Positions 23,294 to 43,043 of a stretch of 64,000 bases of DNA are shown in pieces. This DNA comes from a virus. The DNA lies in the IMG/VR virus record IMGVR_UViG_3300031658_000004, positions 1 to 64,000 of that record, one strand, 5' to 3'. Within the stretch, counting starts at the first letter, position 1; each line of letters opens with the position of its first letter. The notes beneath the pieces were generated by a model that was given only the letters and a program-made list of their open reading frames with translations, ran no database searches and was not told the origin of the DNA. Made by a program: the position numbers and the translations under genes.

Positions 23294-24325
23294 TTATTGC
23301 TCCTCCATGTACTTCCTGTATTCAGGTTTAACCTGAACTTTGAACGTATACAATTCCCGGTTGTGGATTTGTATTTGTTCCCTACATTTGACCTCTAAAG
23401 ATTTAAAACATCTTGAGTCTAACTGCCCTAACTCTTCAAAATGTCTAATAGCTTCTTCAGCATTAAATCTAGCTAGACGATTAATCTTATGTTTATCTAA
23501 CCAATATTGAACATCCTTATTTCTATTAAATTTATAACTAGCATTATCTAACATATTAGCATAATCATAAAGTAAGAAAGGTTCTCCTGTAGGATCAATA
23601 GTAGGAATTATCTTCCCAGCCATTTCTATATCCTCATCACTCGCATGGTAAACGTCTACCATCTTTTTAATGTCATCCATTAATTGTTCAGTCATAGGAA
23701 TTCTATTAGCTGATTGATTAAGGATAGTGTCAGTGGCTATCACCTCCATTTCCCCTTTCTCAATTAGATCTGCTAACACTAGTGACATGTTACTAAAGAT
23801 AAAAGAATCAAAAGGAGCACTTTCATAGTTCATATTATGCTGGTAGTGATTCTCTTGACTTCTACTTTCTAATATAACATCATTACCAGTTTTAGTGTGA
23901 TAGTCACTAGTTAAAGGCCTATGATCATGACAAAAGTATCCATTAGATAACTTAAACATCATCTTAGTCTGAGGGATATTAGCTACATTATGATACTCTT
24001 CATAAAAATTAGTATGAGGAACAATAAAATCAGCTTTCTCATAATCGTTAGTAACAGAAATCTTATGCTCTTTAAGAGAAGCTTTTAATCTATCTGTTGA
24101 CACATTATGCATAGGTAAAATAAATGCTCTTTTAACTACCGATAAATCCGCGGTAGTTTCGGTCGATAAAAGGTCTTTTACTTTATCATACTGTGCTACA
24201 GATTCAGATAGAAACATATTTTCTACATTACCTGCTACAAATCCCACAGTAATCATTTCTGTAAAGCCTAAATCAGTGATTGCTAATTCATGATCTTCTC
24301 CACAGTGTACATTCTTGCTGGCCAT
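23294..24325 (-). CDS. Hypothetical protein coupled to the MoxR ATPase
   Basis: This is a 343-residue protein of no family I recognise. It has several His-rich stretches (NVHCGEDHE near residue 5, FCHDHRPL near 150, ENHYQHNM near 180) that could bind metal, and a helical C-terminus. Its ATG overlaps the last base of the MoxR ATPase stop, which implies coupled translation and a shared function. A substrate or adaptor of the ATPase/VWA pair is a reasonable guess from position, not from sequence. Confidence 0.6.
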   Translation of the reverse strand: MASKNVHCGEDHELAITDLGFTEMITVGFVAGNVENMFLSESVAQYDKVKDLLSTETTADLSVVKRAFILPMHNVSTDRLKASLKEHKISVTNDYEKADFIVPHTNFYEEYHNVANIPQTKMMFKLSNGYFCHDHRPLTSDYHTKTGNDVILESRSQENHYQHNMNYESAPFDSFIFSNMSLVLADLIEKGEMEVIATDTILNQSANRIPMTEQLMDDIKKMVDVYHASDEDIEMAGKIIPTIDPTGEPFLLYDYANMLDNASYKFNRNKDVQYWLDKHKINRLARFNAEEAIRHFEELGQLDSRCFKSLEVKCREQIQIHNRELYTFKVQVKPEYRKYMEEQ

Positions 24326-25500
24326 TACTTCACAGTCATTTTAATGATAGCTGGATTCATCATCATCTTGTTAAACTTAGCCTTATTACCGTTGAATATA
24401 GTCCTAACTACTAAGTATTTTAAGTCATCAGTTAAATAGTCTAAAGTACAGAGCTTAATAAGACGTTCTTGCACTTTTTGAGTTACGCTGTCCGTTTTAG
24501 AGAAAGCGACTGCAAAATTGGCTATACGAACGGCTAAAAGAGATGCTATGTCCGCTCTATAGGAATCATCCTTACCAATACATTCTCTTAATTCAGATAA
24601 TACTTCGACTGGTCCCGTTACTATTTCCCGTGGTGTCACTAACTTATCAAGCTTGTTATTAATGAATGTAGTGAACATAGAAGCGAATTCATTACCTACT
24701 GACCCTTCTCCAATCATTTGAACTAATGGTAACTGGTCTTCAAACTTAGGTATACTCGAGATACTATTAAAGAACGTAGATATAGATCTTGCATTAGTCT
24801 CTTGCGTCACTAACTCAGGGTGCATCAATAAGAAATTAATACATCTAGTATCCATTCCATTCTCTTCAGCCCAACGTGCCCATACATTTATATCGAACTT
24901 TAAGTTAGCTGATATATATCTAGTCTTCTGCGCAGAATCCACACTATTAACCATGTAATCTCCATTATCAGGATTAGCGGTTAATATAATATGCCAGTCT
25001 TTAGGAAGAGTCCATGAGATATAAGTCTGTCTATCAACCAATTCCATACATGCTTGGATAAATCTTGTATCAGCTCTATTCCAGTCATCAAGTAATAATA
25101 CACCACCGGCTTTCTTGTCCGCTATCCATTCAGGAGCTGAATAACTCATTCTACTCTTCCCTGTTGTTTGGAAACCAAGCTTATGCTGTGCATCTACTGC
25201 AACCTCATCTATCCATTTACCTATTTTCTTTCCATCTTGTTCTTTCCACATTTGGAATTGTTTAATAGGAAATCCGACTAAGTCACCTAATTCTTCTATC
25301 TGTGCTAAGTTTAACTTAACAAAGTCTAGACCGTGTTTAGCAGTCATGTCCATTATACTAGTTGTTTTACCAATACCTGACTCACCTACTACCTCAATTG
25401 CTACAGGCTTCTTGCCTTGTGATTGTAAGTGACGATTGTTTGATATAATATGATCTACGAAATCGTGTAGTTCATCGATGTTTAAATTTACTTCATTCAT
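24325..25500 (-). CDS. MoxR-like AAA+ ATPase
   Basis: This is a 391-residue protein. The Walker A box is G39-ESGIGKT, the Walker B box is GGVLLLDDW (residues 132-140), and a sensor-1-type ILTANPDNGDY stretch follows. This arrangement is typical of MoxR/RavA-class AAA+ proteins, which remodel or load metal-dependent partners together with a VWA protein. The upstream gene at 25524 encodes just such a VWA protein with a zincin motif, only 23 bp away, and the pair is recurrent in crAss-like phages. The A-rich leader AATTAAACAAAATG marks the start. The client is unknown. Confidence 0.8.
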   Translation of the reverse strand: MNEVNLNIDELHDFVDHIISNNRHLQSQGKKPVAIEVVGESGIGKTTSIMDMTAKHGLDFVKLNLAQIEELGDLVGFPIKQFQMWKEQDGKKIGKWIDEVAVDAQHKLGFQTTGKSRMSYSAPEWIADKKAGGVLLLDDWNRADTRFIQACMELVDRQTYISWTLPKDWHIILTANPDNGDYMVNSVDSAQKTRYISANLKFDINVWARWAEENGMDTRCINFLLMHPELVTQETNARSISTFFNSISSIPKFEDQLPLVQMIGEGSVGNEFASMFTTFINNKLDKLVTPREIVTGPVEVLSELRECIGKDDSYRADIASLLAVRIANFAVAFSKTDSVTQKVQERLIKLCTLDYLTDDLKYLVVRTIFNGNKAKFNKMMMNPAIIKMTVK

Positions 25501-25523
25501 TTTGTTTAATTGTTTTAGTTTGT

Positions 25524-26696
25524 TTAATTTAATTGAATTTTTACGCCAGGCAAGTCTTCATTAATACTGCATTGAGTACTATGTACCCATAAAGCATTCT
25601 TTGGACAGTTGTTTGGGCTTGGAGCTTCGCCATCTGTTAGACATATAAATCCTGAATATTTATTCTTAGGATCGTTATAATGATCTACCACAGGTTGAAA
25701 ACATGTTCCACCCCTACCTTTAATTTCCCAATTCTTCTTAGGGTCAAAGACTGATACATCAGTTATATTCATGTCAAATTGTGCTACAGTGATTTGGTTA
25801 CCTGTTCTATGCATATGACATATCTCATGCATGAATTCTACTAACTCCTCACTACTAACAGATCCTGAAGTATCGACACCTACTAGCATATGATTCTTAT
25901 GCTTAATCTTCAATCCAGGATTACCAGAGTATCGCTTATTGTTCTTTCTTCTAAGCTTTTTAGTATAGATTGTAGTAGAGTTATTAATAAACCTTCTAAG
26001 ATAGGCCTTCCAATTAAATTTAGGAGGCTCTATAGTAAAGAGTCTTTCAATAAGTTCAGCTAGTTCACCAGGGATTGTACCACATTGTTTCTGTATTGTC
26101 TCTGCGGTTTGCTTCATCTGATGTTCATACTGTTTCTGTACTAACTTCTTTTCTGCTTCGGGTAAGTCACCAATTTCAGCCCATTCTTTATGGTCATATT
26201 GACTATTACCGTCCATATCTCCAAGCATTTTTTGTAGTGCTTCGTTATCTGAGTCCCCATTTTGATCACAAGTATCATTAAGTAAATCATAATACACTTT
26301 AGTACCAGCTTTCTCTGGTAAATATATACCAGGGAATGAATCTAACTGTAATCCGCCATCTGGCAACATTCTAGCATCAATATATTGGTTGATTTCTATA
26401 TCCGCCGCAATATTAAATAGCTTTTTGTTAGGGTACCTGTCTGATAATATAATATGTCCAAAAGCTATATGTAATAACTCATGTTTTAAAAGACCTTGTT
26501 GATGTTCTTCACTAAGATCCATAAAGAAGTCTGGGTTAATTACTAACCTCATACCTATACCGTGTTTTCCTACACCTGCGGTCGCACAACTCATAGTAAA
26601 TTGCTTTTGCAATCCTATAAGAAATATACCGTAGAAAGGCTCTGAAAATATCAACGTTTTTGATATTCTAGAAAGTTGTTCCTGATTTGTTCTCAT
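25524..26696 (-). CDS. Zincin-VWA fusion protein (DUF2201-like), partner of MoxR
   Basis: This 390-residue protein joins two domains. Residues 1-130 contain H72-E-L-L-H76-I-A-F-G-H81, a complete HExxHxxxxH zinc-protease helix. Residues 265-390 form a von Willebrand A domain with an intact MIDAS: D275-T-S277-G-S279, T331 in GRGGTCF, and D355 in LTDGEAP. This is the architecture of the putative metallopeptidase/VWA (DUF2201) family that is genetically linked to MoxR ATPases. The start codon overlaps the stop of a 30-residue membrane peptide (ATGA). Proteolytic activity on a phage or host target is plausible because all metal ligands are present, but the target is not visible. Confidence 0.8.
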   Translation of the reverse strand: MRTNQEQLSRISKTLIFSEPFYGIFLIGLQKQFTMSCATAGVGKHGIGMRLVINPDFFMDLSEEHQQGLLKHELLHIAFGHIILSDRYPNKKLFNIAADIEINQYIDARMLPDGGLQLDSFPGIYLPEKAGTKVYYDLLNDTCDQNGDSDNEALQKMLGDMDGNSQYDHKEWAEIGDLPEAEKKLVQKQYEHQMKQTAETIQKQCGTIPGELAELIERLFTIEPPKFNWKAYLRRFINNSTTIYTKKLRRKNNKRYSGNPGLKIKHKNHMLVGVDTSGSVSSEELVEFMHEICHMHRTGNQITVAQFDMNITDVSVFDPKKNWEIKGRGGTCFQPVVDHYNDPKNKYSGFICLTDGEAPSPNNCPKNALWVHSTQCSINEDLPGVKIQLN

Positions 26697-41941: not shown

Positions 41942-41966
41942 AAAAAGGGGTTATTTATCCCCTTTT
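41942..41966 (-). terminator. Terminator overlapping the stop of the first leftward gene
   Basis: AAAAGGGG and CCCCTTTT form an 8-bp stem with an 8-base loop, and the minus-strand arm runs into TTTTTG. The stop codon of the 41951-42100 gene lies inside the loop. A longer imperfect hairpin (CCTCTxGCTT / AAGCxAGAGG, 41899-41936) follows at once. Together they could limit how much leftward transcription passes this gene. Confidence 0.65.
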
Positions 41967-42100
41967 CTTAAAAGGACTAGTCCTTTACTGTCGTTCTTAT
42001 ACCAATACTCTTCGATAGTTGGTATACCATCTTTACTCTTCATAGTGATGATAACTTTAGTGTTGTTATCATACTCTATAATGTCCATTGCTGTTTCCAT
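41951..42100 (-). CDS. 49-residue hypothetical protein, first leftward gene
   Basis: The protein begins METAMDIIEYDNNTKVIITM and ends LVLLRKGDK, a compact beta-rich small protein. It is the first gene on the left side of the divergent region, and its stop lies in the loop of a terminator hairpin. Early high-level expression as a tiny regulator or host-takeover protein is possible but unproven. Confidence 0.6.
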   Translation of the reverse strand: METAMDIIEYDNNTKVIITMKSKDGIPTIEEYWYKNDSKGLVLLRKGDK

Positions 42101-42244: not shown

Positions 42245-42252
42245 TATCTTTG
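42245..42252 (+). promoter_or_regulatory. TAnnTTTG promoter box for the rightward late operon
   Basis: TATCTTTG is an exact -7 match for the Bacteroidota sigma consensus and is preceded by a long T-rich tract. A clear TTTG at -33 is missing. Transcription would begin near 42258, at the start of the folded leader described next. Confidence 0.5.
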
Positions 42253-42257
42253 CAGTC

Positions 42258-42515
42258 CAATATTATCGTCCCTTGGTAACCAAAAATGGGACTAGACATC
42301 GGATTTCGAACTCTAAATAAGAGGGAAATTTTCTCCGGTAATTGGAAAAAGAGTAAGATATAAACTCTGATTTGGATAGAATGCACACAGGTACGTGCGG
42401 TGAATTAACATCAAGATCACTATCCATGGGTCCCCCCTGAAAAGAGGAGCACTGTCAGAAGGAAATTCACACTTGAAACTAAAGCCACAAGGGGGTGAAC
42501 TATATCCAATTTAGA
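42258..42515 (+). ncRNA. Structured leader RNA with interleaved pseudoknot pairings
   Basis: About 250 nt of non-coding sequence lie between a promoter box and the first rightward ATG (42519). Pairings found by hand: GTCCC+TTGG / CCAA+GGGAC (42268-42292); CTCT/AGAG (42311-42323); TTTTCTCC / GGAAAAAG (42329-42351, one mismatch); AGAGT/ACTCT (42350-42368); TGGATAG (42373-42379) with CTATCCA (42420-42426), enclosing GCAC/GTGC; GTGAATT (42400-42406) with AATTCAC (42464-42470); CCCCC (42432-42436) with GGGGG (42491-42495). The last three sets cross each other in order, a chain of pseudoknots. I recognise no known riboswitch, intron or tmRNA. Confidence 0.5.
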
Positions 42516-42518
42516 AAT

Positions 42519-42707
42519 ATGACAAAGTATAGATGTACTTGTAAAGAAACAAGAGAACTTAATAAGATGACGATGGTAGTTATTGATGATAAGGTAAGGA
42601 TTAAAGAAGCCTTATGTAAGTGTGGAGAATATATGGAGGAAGTTAACCAGGAGTTTGGAGGTTTCCCATCACTAATTCGAACCGAACCTACATTAAGTAA
42701 AAAATAA
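42519..42707 (+). CDS. Small zinc-binding protein, first gene of the rightward operon
   Basis: I place the start at ATG 42519 (MTKYRCTCKETRELNKM). An upstream GTG at 42495 would begin inside the folded leader. The 62-residue protein has CTCK and CKCGEYM cysteine pairs spaced to bind one zinc. As first gene after the pseudoknotted leader it is the natural target of any leader control. The function is unknown; a small regulator is likely. Confidence 0.65.
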   Translation: MTKYRCTCKETRELNKMTMVVIDDKVRIKEALCKCGEYMEEVNQEFGGFPSLIRTEPTLSKK

Positions 42708-42718
42708 ATCTAAAAAGA

Positions 42719-42751
42719 TTTGGTATTATAAAGGAATTATTTATATATTTG
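42719..42751 (+). promoter_or_regulatory. Full Bacteroidota-type promoter (TTTG-N21-TAnnTTTG)
   Basis: TTTG at 42719-42722 and TATATTTG at 42744-42751 are separated by 21 bp, the best match in the window to the -33/-7 consensus of Bacteroidota primary sigma factor. It lies 22 bp upstream of the GroES-like ATG at 42774, giving that gene its own start site. Confidence 0.65.
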
Positions 42752-42773
42752 CACCAACTAAAATATATATATA

Positions 42774-43043
42774 ATGAAATTTACACCAAACAATCATTGG
42801 GTAGTCCTTCCAGACCCAACAATCACAGAAACAGAGTCAGGAATCATCTTAGATGAAGCTACTTCTATTCAGAACGCTAAACGTTCGAATATATTAGAGG
42901 TTTTAGCAGTAGGTCCAGCATGCACATTCTGCAAAGTTGGGGATACGGTTATGATAGACCCTAGAACAGAAGCTGTAAAATGTAGGATAGATGATACAGA
43001 TATGCTATTAGTTGGGGAACACCAATTATTAGGTAAGTGGTAA
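42774..43043 (+). CDS. GroES-like co-chaperonin
   Basis: This is an 89-residue protein following the Cpn10 pattern: an N-terminal HWVVLPDPTITE strand, the SGIILDE step, then ILEVLAVGP, VKVGDTVMID-like (CKVGDTVMIDPRTE) and a final LLVGEHQLLGKW. Like T4 gp31, phage versions can replace or adapt host GroES so that GroEL folds the phage capsid protein. It is controlled by its own consensus promoter at 42719 and precedes the structural genes. The mobile-loop region (LDEATSIQNAKRS) differs from bacterial GroES. Confidence 0.75.
   Translation: MKFTPNNHWVVLPDPTITETESGIILDEATSIQNAKRSNILEVLAVGPACTFCKVGDTVMIDPRTEAVKCRIDDTDMLLVGEHQLLGKW

What the first reader, a model, noticed from the sequence alone, without database searches (positions are those of the whole stretch)
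42258..42515. Pseudoknotted leader RNA at the head of the late operon
Three long-range pairings cross in sequence order: 7 bp (42373-42379 with 42420-42426), 7 bp (42400-42406 with 42464-42470) and 5 GC pairs (42432-42436 with 42491-42495), with four local hairpins before them. The last strand lies 24 bp before the ATG at 42519. Such a fold between a promoter box and the first gene could be a phage switch sensing a ligand, protein or infection stage. I do not recognise it as any known RNA class.
Basis: partly seen in the sequence, partly recalled or inferred. Interest (0 to 1): 0.75.

Follow-up and report, generated by a model that had tools for sequence, protein, structure and literature searches.

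The report
New structured RNA in crAss-like phages
A roughly 250-letter piece of RNA, folded into ten short helices that evolution has kept by matched mutations, sits at the same spot in about 145 distinct environmental crAss-like phage sequences; it matches no catalogued RNA family, and its job is still unknown.

Summary
The region is a real, conserved structured RNA, but not the one drawn. Homologues were found in roughly 145 distinct viral sequences, always in the same syntenic slot: RNA, optional cassette gene, groES, terminase, portal, in one clade of crAss-like phages (TerL about 42% identical to gut crAss phages).

Covariation supports ten nested helices. In 68 aligned homologues 95% of cells are paired and 30 of 49 pairs show double changes; 45 more distant sequences not used to build the model repeat this (92%, 28 of 49). 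The other two show no compensatory change, and an unbiased window scan finds no crossing helix. It is therefore not demonstrably pseudoknotted.

It is also not the leader of a fixed gene. The RNA has its own Bacteroidota-type promoter in 131 of 143 loci, groES has another downstream in 88 of 88, and genes on both sides change. There is no Rfam match and no hit in six reference phage genomes.

Most likely it is a stand-alone, trans-acting or protein-bound phage RNA (about 0.45); an operon-level cis element is the main rival. No expression data were available. Function is inferred, not shown.

The parts
42245..42252 (+). -7 promoter box TATCTTTG of the Bacteroidota type (TAnnTTTG); the -33 region here is only T-rich
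   Evidence: sequence; TAnnTTTG within 40 nt upstream in 133 of 150 loci, TATCTTTG the commonest
42257..42508 (+). the structured RNA (conserved unit from P1 to the end of the conserved tail)
   Evidence: homologues; non-coding: no open frame kept in any of six frames
   Evidence: 87% paired, all 5 pairs with double changes; swap test 0/1000; weaker (56%) in distant set
42341..42345 (+). helix P1, 3' strand
42269..42291 (+). hairpin P2 (42269-42272/42288-42291) with conserved loop GGTAACCA
   Evidence: 100% paired
42298..42339 (+). stem P3 (42298-42303/42334-42339) with terminal stem P3a (42311-42314/42320-42323), invariant loop AAATA; P3a is replaced by a long insertion in some relatives
42351..42358 (+). 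helix P4, 5' strand (interrupted helix with 42467-42474)
   Evidence: swap test 0/1000, perfect 7-8 bp in L154, L062, L169; scan z = 9.6
42467..42474 (+). helix P4, 3' strand
42366..42371 (+). helix P5, 5' strand (pairs with 42454-42459)
   Evidence: 97% paired, 5 of 6 pairs with double changes
42454..42459 (+). helix P5, 3' strand
   Evidence: 100% paired, 4 of 7 pairs with double changes; 100% and 5 of 7 in the distant set
42420..42426 (+). helix PA, 3' strand
42383..42398 (+). hairpin P6 (42383-42386/42395-42398), conserved loop ACAGGTAn
   Evidence: 99% paired, one pair with double changes
   Evidence: 100% paired; covariation limited: 95/1000, 4/1000
   Evidence: swap test 10/1000, 2/1000
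42489..42508 (+). conserved 3' tail AAGGGGG followed by a YTRYRTYY motif; no internal partner found, weak short hairpin possible
42519..42707 (+). cassette gene in this phage: 62-aa Cys-rich (zinc-ribbon-like) protein; replaced or absent in relatives
42719..42751 (+). separate promoter of groES: TTTGG (42719-42723) and TATATTTG (42744-42751)
   Evidence: TAnnTTTG box between RNA and groES in 88 of 88 loci
42774..43043 (+). groES co-chaperonin gene, first gene of the conserved right-arm operon
   Evidence: phrog_3188, E = 5e-11

Best explanation
It is a previously uncatalogued structured RNA of about 250 nt, folded into a 5' domain (P1 enclosing P2 and P3/P3a) and a 3' domain (P4-P5 enclosing PA with P6 and P7, plus P8), all nested, followed by a conserved G-rich tail. 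SHOWN: conservation, structure by covariation, fixed genomic slot in one clade of crAss-like phages, own promoter box, separate promoter box for groES, exchangeable neighbours on both sides. INFERRED: it is transcribed from a host-type promoter as a functional RNA in its own right. It folds into a compact body with invariant loops that binds a protein or RNA partner, with the G-rich tail free for a partner in trans; where short genes flank it they ride on its transcript. The partner and its effect on infection are unknown. (Confidence that it is a real structured RNA with this nested fold: about 0.97; the figure below is for the whole statement including mechanism.)
For: Structure: 95.2% of cells paired, 30 of 49 pairs with double changes, slid controls 35-53%; repeated on 45 distinct distant sequences not used for the model: 91.8%, 28 of 49. 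Swap tests 0/1000 for P1, P2, P3, P3a, P4, P5, PA and P6. The unbiased window-pair scan returns these helices plus P8 and the local alternative hairpin, and nothing crossing. Non-coding. Stand-alone character: promoter box directly upstream in 133 of 150 loci or 131 of 143 (slightly looser motif); groES has its own box in 88 of 88; 55 of 88 have no ORF between RNA and that promoter; downstream cassettes vary: zinc ribbon, LamG-like adhesins, M15-like peptidase, kinase plus regulator; short upstream genes from several families. RNA-bearing loci keep synteny. One strong match per genome in six 82-88 kb genomes.
Against: No transcript has been seen. No intrinsic terminator follows the RNA in any of 55 cassette-less loci, so the transcript probably runs into groES, as a leader would. 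Where a cassette gene is present its start codon often lies only about 20-31 nt after the tail, so there the RNA is also a 5' UTR. No target or protein partner was identified.
Confidence: 0.45

Rival explanations
1. Operon-level cis element. The nascent RNA at the start of the rightward transcript acts on its own transcript, for example by binding the elongating host RNA polymerase and suppressing termination (as HK022 putRNA does), or by protecting or tuning the late mRNA.
For: Lies at the switch between divergent arms where rightward transcription begins; predicted start site falls at or next to P1 in the main group; no terminator between RNA and groES in 55 loci, so transcripts probably continue. 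Late Crassvirales genes are thought to use host RNA polymerase (PMC10136315). HK022 putRNA shows that a nascent phage RNA can do this alone (PMC9378689).
Against: groES has its own promoter box downstream in 88 of 88 loci, so many late transcripts would lack the element. In 12 of 143 loci the RNA is not promoter-proximal. No NusG-like protein in six relatives.
Confidence: 0.3
2. Ligand-, protein- or stage-sensing switch controlling the gene immediately downstream.
For: Complex conserved fold between a promoter and, here, an ORF 24 nt further on; the tail AAGGGGG resembles a ribosome-binding site.
Against: The downstream gene is absent in 55 of 88 loci and otherwise of unrelated kinds; spacing of the G-run to the start codon is too long for a normal ribosome-binding site; no alternative pairing of the tail covaries. 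One local alternative hairpin (42351-42354/42364-42367) is compatible with two states but is lost in distant members.
Confidence: 0.1
3. RNA tied to the replication origin or to packaging, for example a replication primer or regulator at the arm junction, or a packaging RNA.
For: Lies where cumulative GC skew turns and leftward replication genes diverge from rightward structural genes; groES, terminase and portal follow within about 6 kb.
Against: Skew turn is confounded with coding strand; no origin or packaging data; no sequence or family match to any known RNA.
Confidence: 0.1
4. The pseudoknot as drawn by the first reader (helices A, B and C together) is the functional fold.
For: All three are perfectly complementary in the window.
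Against: B: 66% paired, no double change; C: one-sided changes only; swap tests 753/1000 and 555/1000.
Confidence: 0.02

Closest known systems
HK022 putRNA (nascent phage RNA antiterminator)
   Same: Phage RNA element near the start of a long transcript made by host RNA polymerase; could act without a phage protein
   Different: From general knowledge put is much smaller (two hairpins) and lies in early operons; no shared sequence looked for beyond Rfam; antitermination not tested here; groES has a separate downstream promoter box
Phage lambda late leader (lambda 6S RNA made from pR')
   Same: Short RNA made from the promoter at the head of the late region (from general knowledge)
   Different: The lambda leader ends at a terminator overcome by Q; here no terminator follows the RNA, and the conserved fold is much more elaborate
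GOLLD and ROOL RNAs
   Same: Conserved ornate phage RNAs of unknown function found by comparative genomics (PMC12286853)
   Different: Those are about 660-800+ nt, often near tRNA islands; this is about 250 nt, not near tRNAs (no tRNA in the window), and does not match their Rfam models
Riboswitches and ribosomal-protein-type leaders
   Same: Multi-helix RNA with invariant loops close to a promoter
   Different: No conserved regulated gene downstream, no covarying alternative pairing of a ribosome-binding site or terminator

Membership tests
Any Rfam 15 family (4227 models) | Score above the family's gathering threshold | tested here: not met
   No match in the window; best match at relaxed threshold is an unrelated snoRNA at 16.9 bits against a cut-off of 55; none overlapping the RNA in six homologue loci
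Pseudoknotted RNA (as proposed) | Crossing helices supported by covariation | tested here: not met
   Helices B and C fail; no crossing helix in the unbiased scan
Structured RNA family | Nested helices with compensatory changes in independent homologues | tested here: met
Riboswitch or cis leader of a given gene | Conserved association with a regulated downstream gene | tested here: not met
   Next ORF absent in 55 of 88, variable otherwise
Riboswitch or cis leader of a given gene | Expression platform (alternative terminator or sequestered ribosome-binding site) | tested here: inconclusive
   No terminator in 55 loci; tail has no covarying partner; weak short hairpin only
Riboswitch | Specific ligand binding | not testable with these tools
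   Needs in-line probing or SHAPE
put-like antitermination RNA | RNA at or near the 5' end of the transcript it serves | tested here: inconclusive
   Promoter-proximal in 131 of 143 loci but groES has its own downstream promoter box
put-like antitermination RNA | Suppresses pausing and termination by host RNA polymerase | not testable with these tools
   Needs a terminator read-through assay
Stand-alone phage non-coding RNA | Own promoter and no coding capacity | tested here: met
   (promoter inferred from motif only)
Stand-alone phage non-coding RNA | Discrete transcript with defined 3' end | not testable with these tools
   No RNA-seq; no intrinsic terminator found
Y-RNA-like partner of a TROVE (Ro) protein | TROVE protein in the same phage | tested here: not met
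   0 of 6 relatives and own record; an early TROVE protein is reported for crAss001 (PMC10136315)

The most novel reading that the evidence does not exclude
A universal, trans-acting structured RNA of a whole clade of crAss-like phages, expressed from a host promoter at the arm junction, whose body and free G-rich tail capture a host RNA or protein to take over the cell: a new functional class of phage RNA.
Probability: 0.3. Interest if true: 0.85.

Novelty: new variant of a known kind. Interest (0 to 1): 0.62.

Why it matters
crAss-like phages are among the most abundant viruses known, yet I found no paper in the held library describing a conserved structured RNA in them. This RNA was present in every groES locus of the clade with enough upstream sequence, has one strong match per genome, and has a well-resolved secondary structure with about ten helices and a usable covariance model. 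That makes a phage RNA of unknown function directly testable by RNA-seq, pull-down and deletion, and gives a marker for the clade.

Tried and rejected
Outer helix 42340-42345/42506-42511 of the single-sequence minimum-energy fold: not conserved (165/1000). Local hairpin 42351-42355/42363-42367: some covariation (0/1000, z = 5.2) but impossible in several distant members; kept only as a possible alternative state. A conserved 3' hairpin after the G-run: not supported (539/2000). A short hairpin of pyrimidines with the G-run: weak (338/2000 by duplex, 1/200 by hairpin energy). Pairing of the tail to the anti-Shine-Dalgarno sequence: considered from complementarity (AAGGGGG to CCUCCUU); L062 and L169 carry AAGGGAG, which breaks it. 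Coding sequence: rejected. Same RNA in bacterial genomes: 15 pattern matches in GTDB genomes, none a homologue by nhmmer. Homologue in phi14:2, four gut crAss phages and Dulem virus 41: none, while the same search rings in six relatives. By DNA similarity, none in 50,697 phage records. TROVE or NusG partner: none. L073 seemed to lack the RNA, but its contig ends inside a cassette region before the RNA could be reached. I first took the RNA to be always the first element on the rightward strand; one search corrected this.

Full report
WHAT WAS CHECKED. The window is part of a 66.4-kb viral record from a crAss-like phage: the terminase is about 42% identical to gut Crassvirales terminases, and groES, terminase, portal and capsid lie rightward while replication genes lie leftward from about 42 kb. 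The three strand pairs of the finding exist as written. In a single sequence they are weak evidence: fold z-score -0.91, and helices of 7 bp or more only modestly exceed shuffles.

HOMOLOGUES. The groES protein retrieved 79 viral loci and the neighbouring 62-aa protein 31 more. The leader sequence is present in 72 of the 79 groES loci; the other seven are cut by contig ends before it can be reached (L073 examined). Pattern scans added more. After removal of identical sequences there are 102 in the first set and 45 in the second, more divergent set. There is no coding frame, no Rfam match, no similar DNA in 50,697 phage records, no model match in six reference phages (phi14:2, four gut crAss phages and Dulem virus 41; the same search rings in six relatives), and no homologue among GTDB pattern matches.

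STRUCTURE. Covariation scoring, column counts, an alignment-free partner-swap test and an unbiased scan of all window pairs agree on one nested fold: P1 (42257-42261/42341-42345) enclosing P2 and P3/P3a; then P4 (42351-42358/42467-42474), P5 (42366-42371/42454-42459), PA (42373-42379/42420-42426) enclosing P6 and P7, and P8 (42429-42434/42446-42453). In 68 sequences 95.2% of cells pair and 30 of 49 pairs show changes on both sides; sliding partners by 1-3 columns drops this to 35-53%. On 45 distinct sequences that played no part in building the model the figures are 91.8% and 28 of 49 (alignment fitted to the model, but the swap tests on the same set also give 0/1000 for P1, P2, P3, P3a, P4, P5 and PA). 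P7 rests on weaker covariation, and P6 shows none in the distant set. Helices B and C fail: B has no double change and 66% pairing; C has one-sided changes only; swap tests give 753/1000 and 555/1000. No crossing helix appears among the significant pairs. Caveat: swap and shuffle tests do not remove all effects of shared ancestry; sequences were thinned to at most 85-93% identity to limit this, and R-scape itself could not be run.

TAIL. After P4 comes an A-rich linker, then AAGGGGG and YTRYRTYY. No internal partner covaries; a short hairpin with upstream pyrimidines is possible but weakly supported. The function of this tail is open.

CONTEXT. A TAnnTTTG box lies within 40 nt upstream in 133 of 150 loci. 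From general knowledge of Bacteroidota promoters the start site would fall at or next to P1 in the main group. groES has its own TAnnTTTG box, usually with TTTGG about 20 nt upstream, in 88 of 88 loci. In 55 of these nothing but this promoter lies between RNA and groES, and no terminator-like hairpin is found there. In the rest, exchangeable cassettes sit between: the zinc-ribbon-like protein of this window, LamG-like adhesins, an M15-like peptidase, a PAS histidine kinase with response regulator (names by inspection of the sequences, not database-tested). In about a third of loci a short rightward gene of one of several families ends just before the RNA, and in 12 of 143 no promoter box separates them. 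The synteny RNA - cassette - groES - terminase - portal holds in the distant set too.

INTERPRETATION. An RNA whose neighbours change on both sides while its fold and place stay fixed is best read as a functional unit of its own, rather than as a switch for one gene. I favour a stand-alone, partner-binding phage RNA (0.45). Its lack of a terminator keeps alive an operon-level cis role such as putRNA-like antitermination (0.3; comparison PMC9378689; late genes of Crassvirales are thought to be transcribed by host polymerase, PMC10136315). A gene-specific sensor (0.1) and an origin or packaging RNA (0.1) are less likely. All functional statements are inference; there are no expression data.

NOVELTY. 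It is a new RNA family by every test available here. Orphan structured phage RNAs are a known kind (GOLLD and ROOL, PMC12286853), so I rate it a new variant of a known kind rather than categorically new.

Noticed in passing
42496-42773 in the window and the equivalent gap in L008, L013, L015, L021, L032, L062, L183, L191, L212, L221: A variable cassette site between the RNA and the groES promoter holds unrelated genes: zinc-ribbon-like protein, LamG-like adhesins, M15-like peptidase, PAS kinase plus response regulator, small membrane proteins.
   Followed up: partly
immediately upstream of the RNA in L063, L070, L072, L258, L261, L029, L181 and others: Short rightward genes of at least three families end just before the RNA: Cys-rich peptides ending CENCGS, a very basic 44-aa peptide ending YRGQGR, and a 74-aa membrane peptide ending KFVDQK.
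   Followed up: partly
L181, L198, L320, L313, L284, L271, L324 (P3a position): P3a is replaced by an insertion of about 60-80 nt, so the 5' domain has a variable arm.
   Followed up: no
41942-41967: Hairpin with T-runs on both sides (AAAAAGGGGTTATTTATCCCCTTTTC) between the leftward operon and the RNA; terminator-like on both strands.
   Followed up: no
L032 and L191, between cassette and groES: 12-bp hairpin followed by a T-run lies after the cassette, in front of the groES promoter; elsewhere such terminators are rare.
   Followed up: no
24325-26696 (- strand): Adjacent AAA ATPase-like and DUF2201 VWA/metallopeptidase-like genes in the replication arm.
   Followed up: no
42351-42367: A local hairpin competes with P4 and the base of P5 and shows some covariation of its own; it could be a folding intermediate or second state.
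   Followed up: partly
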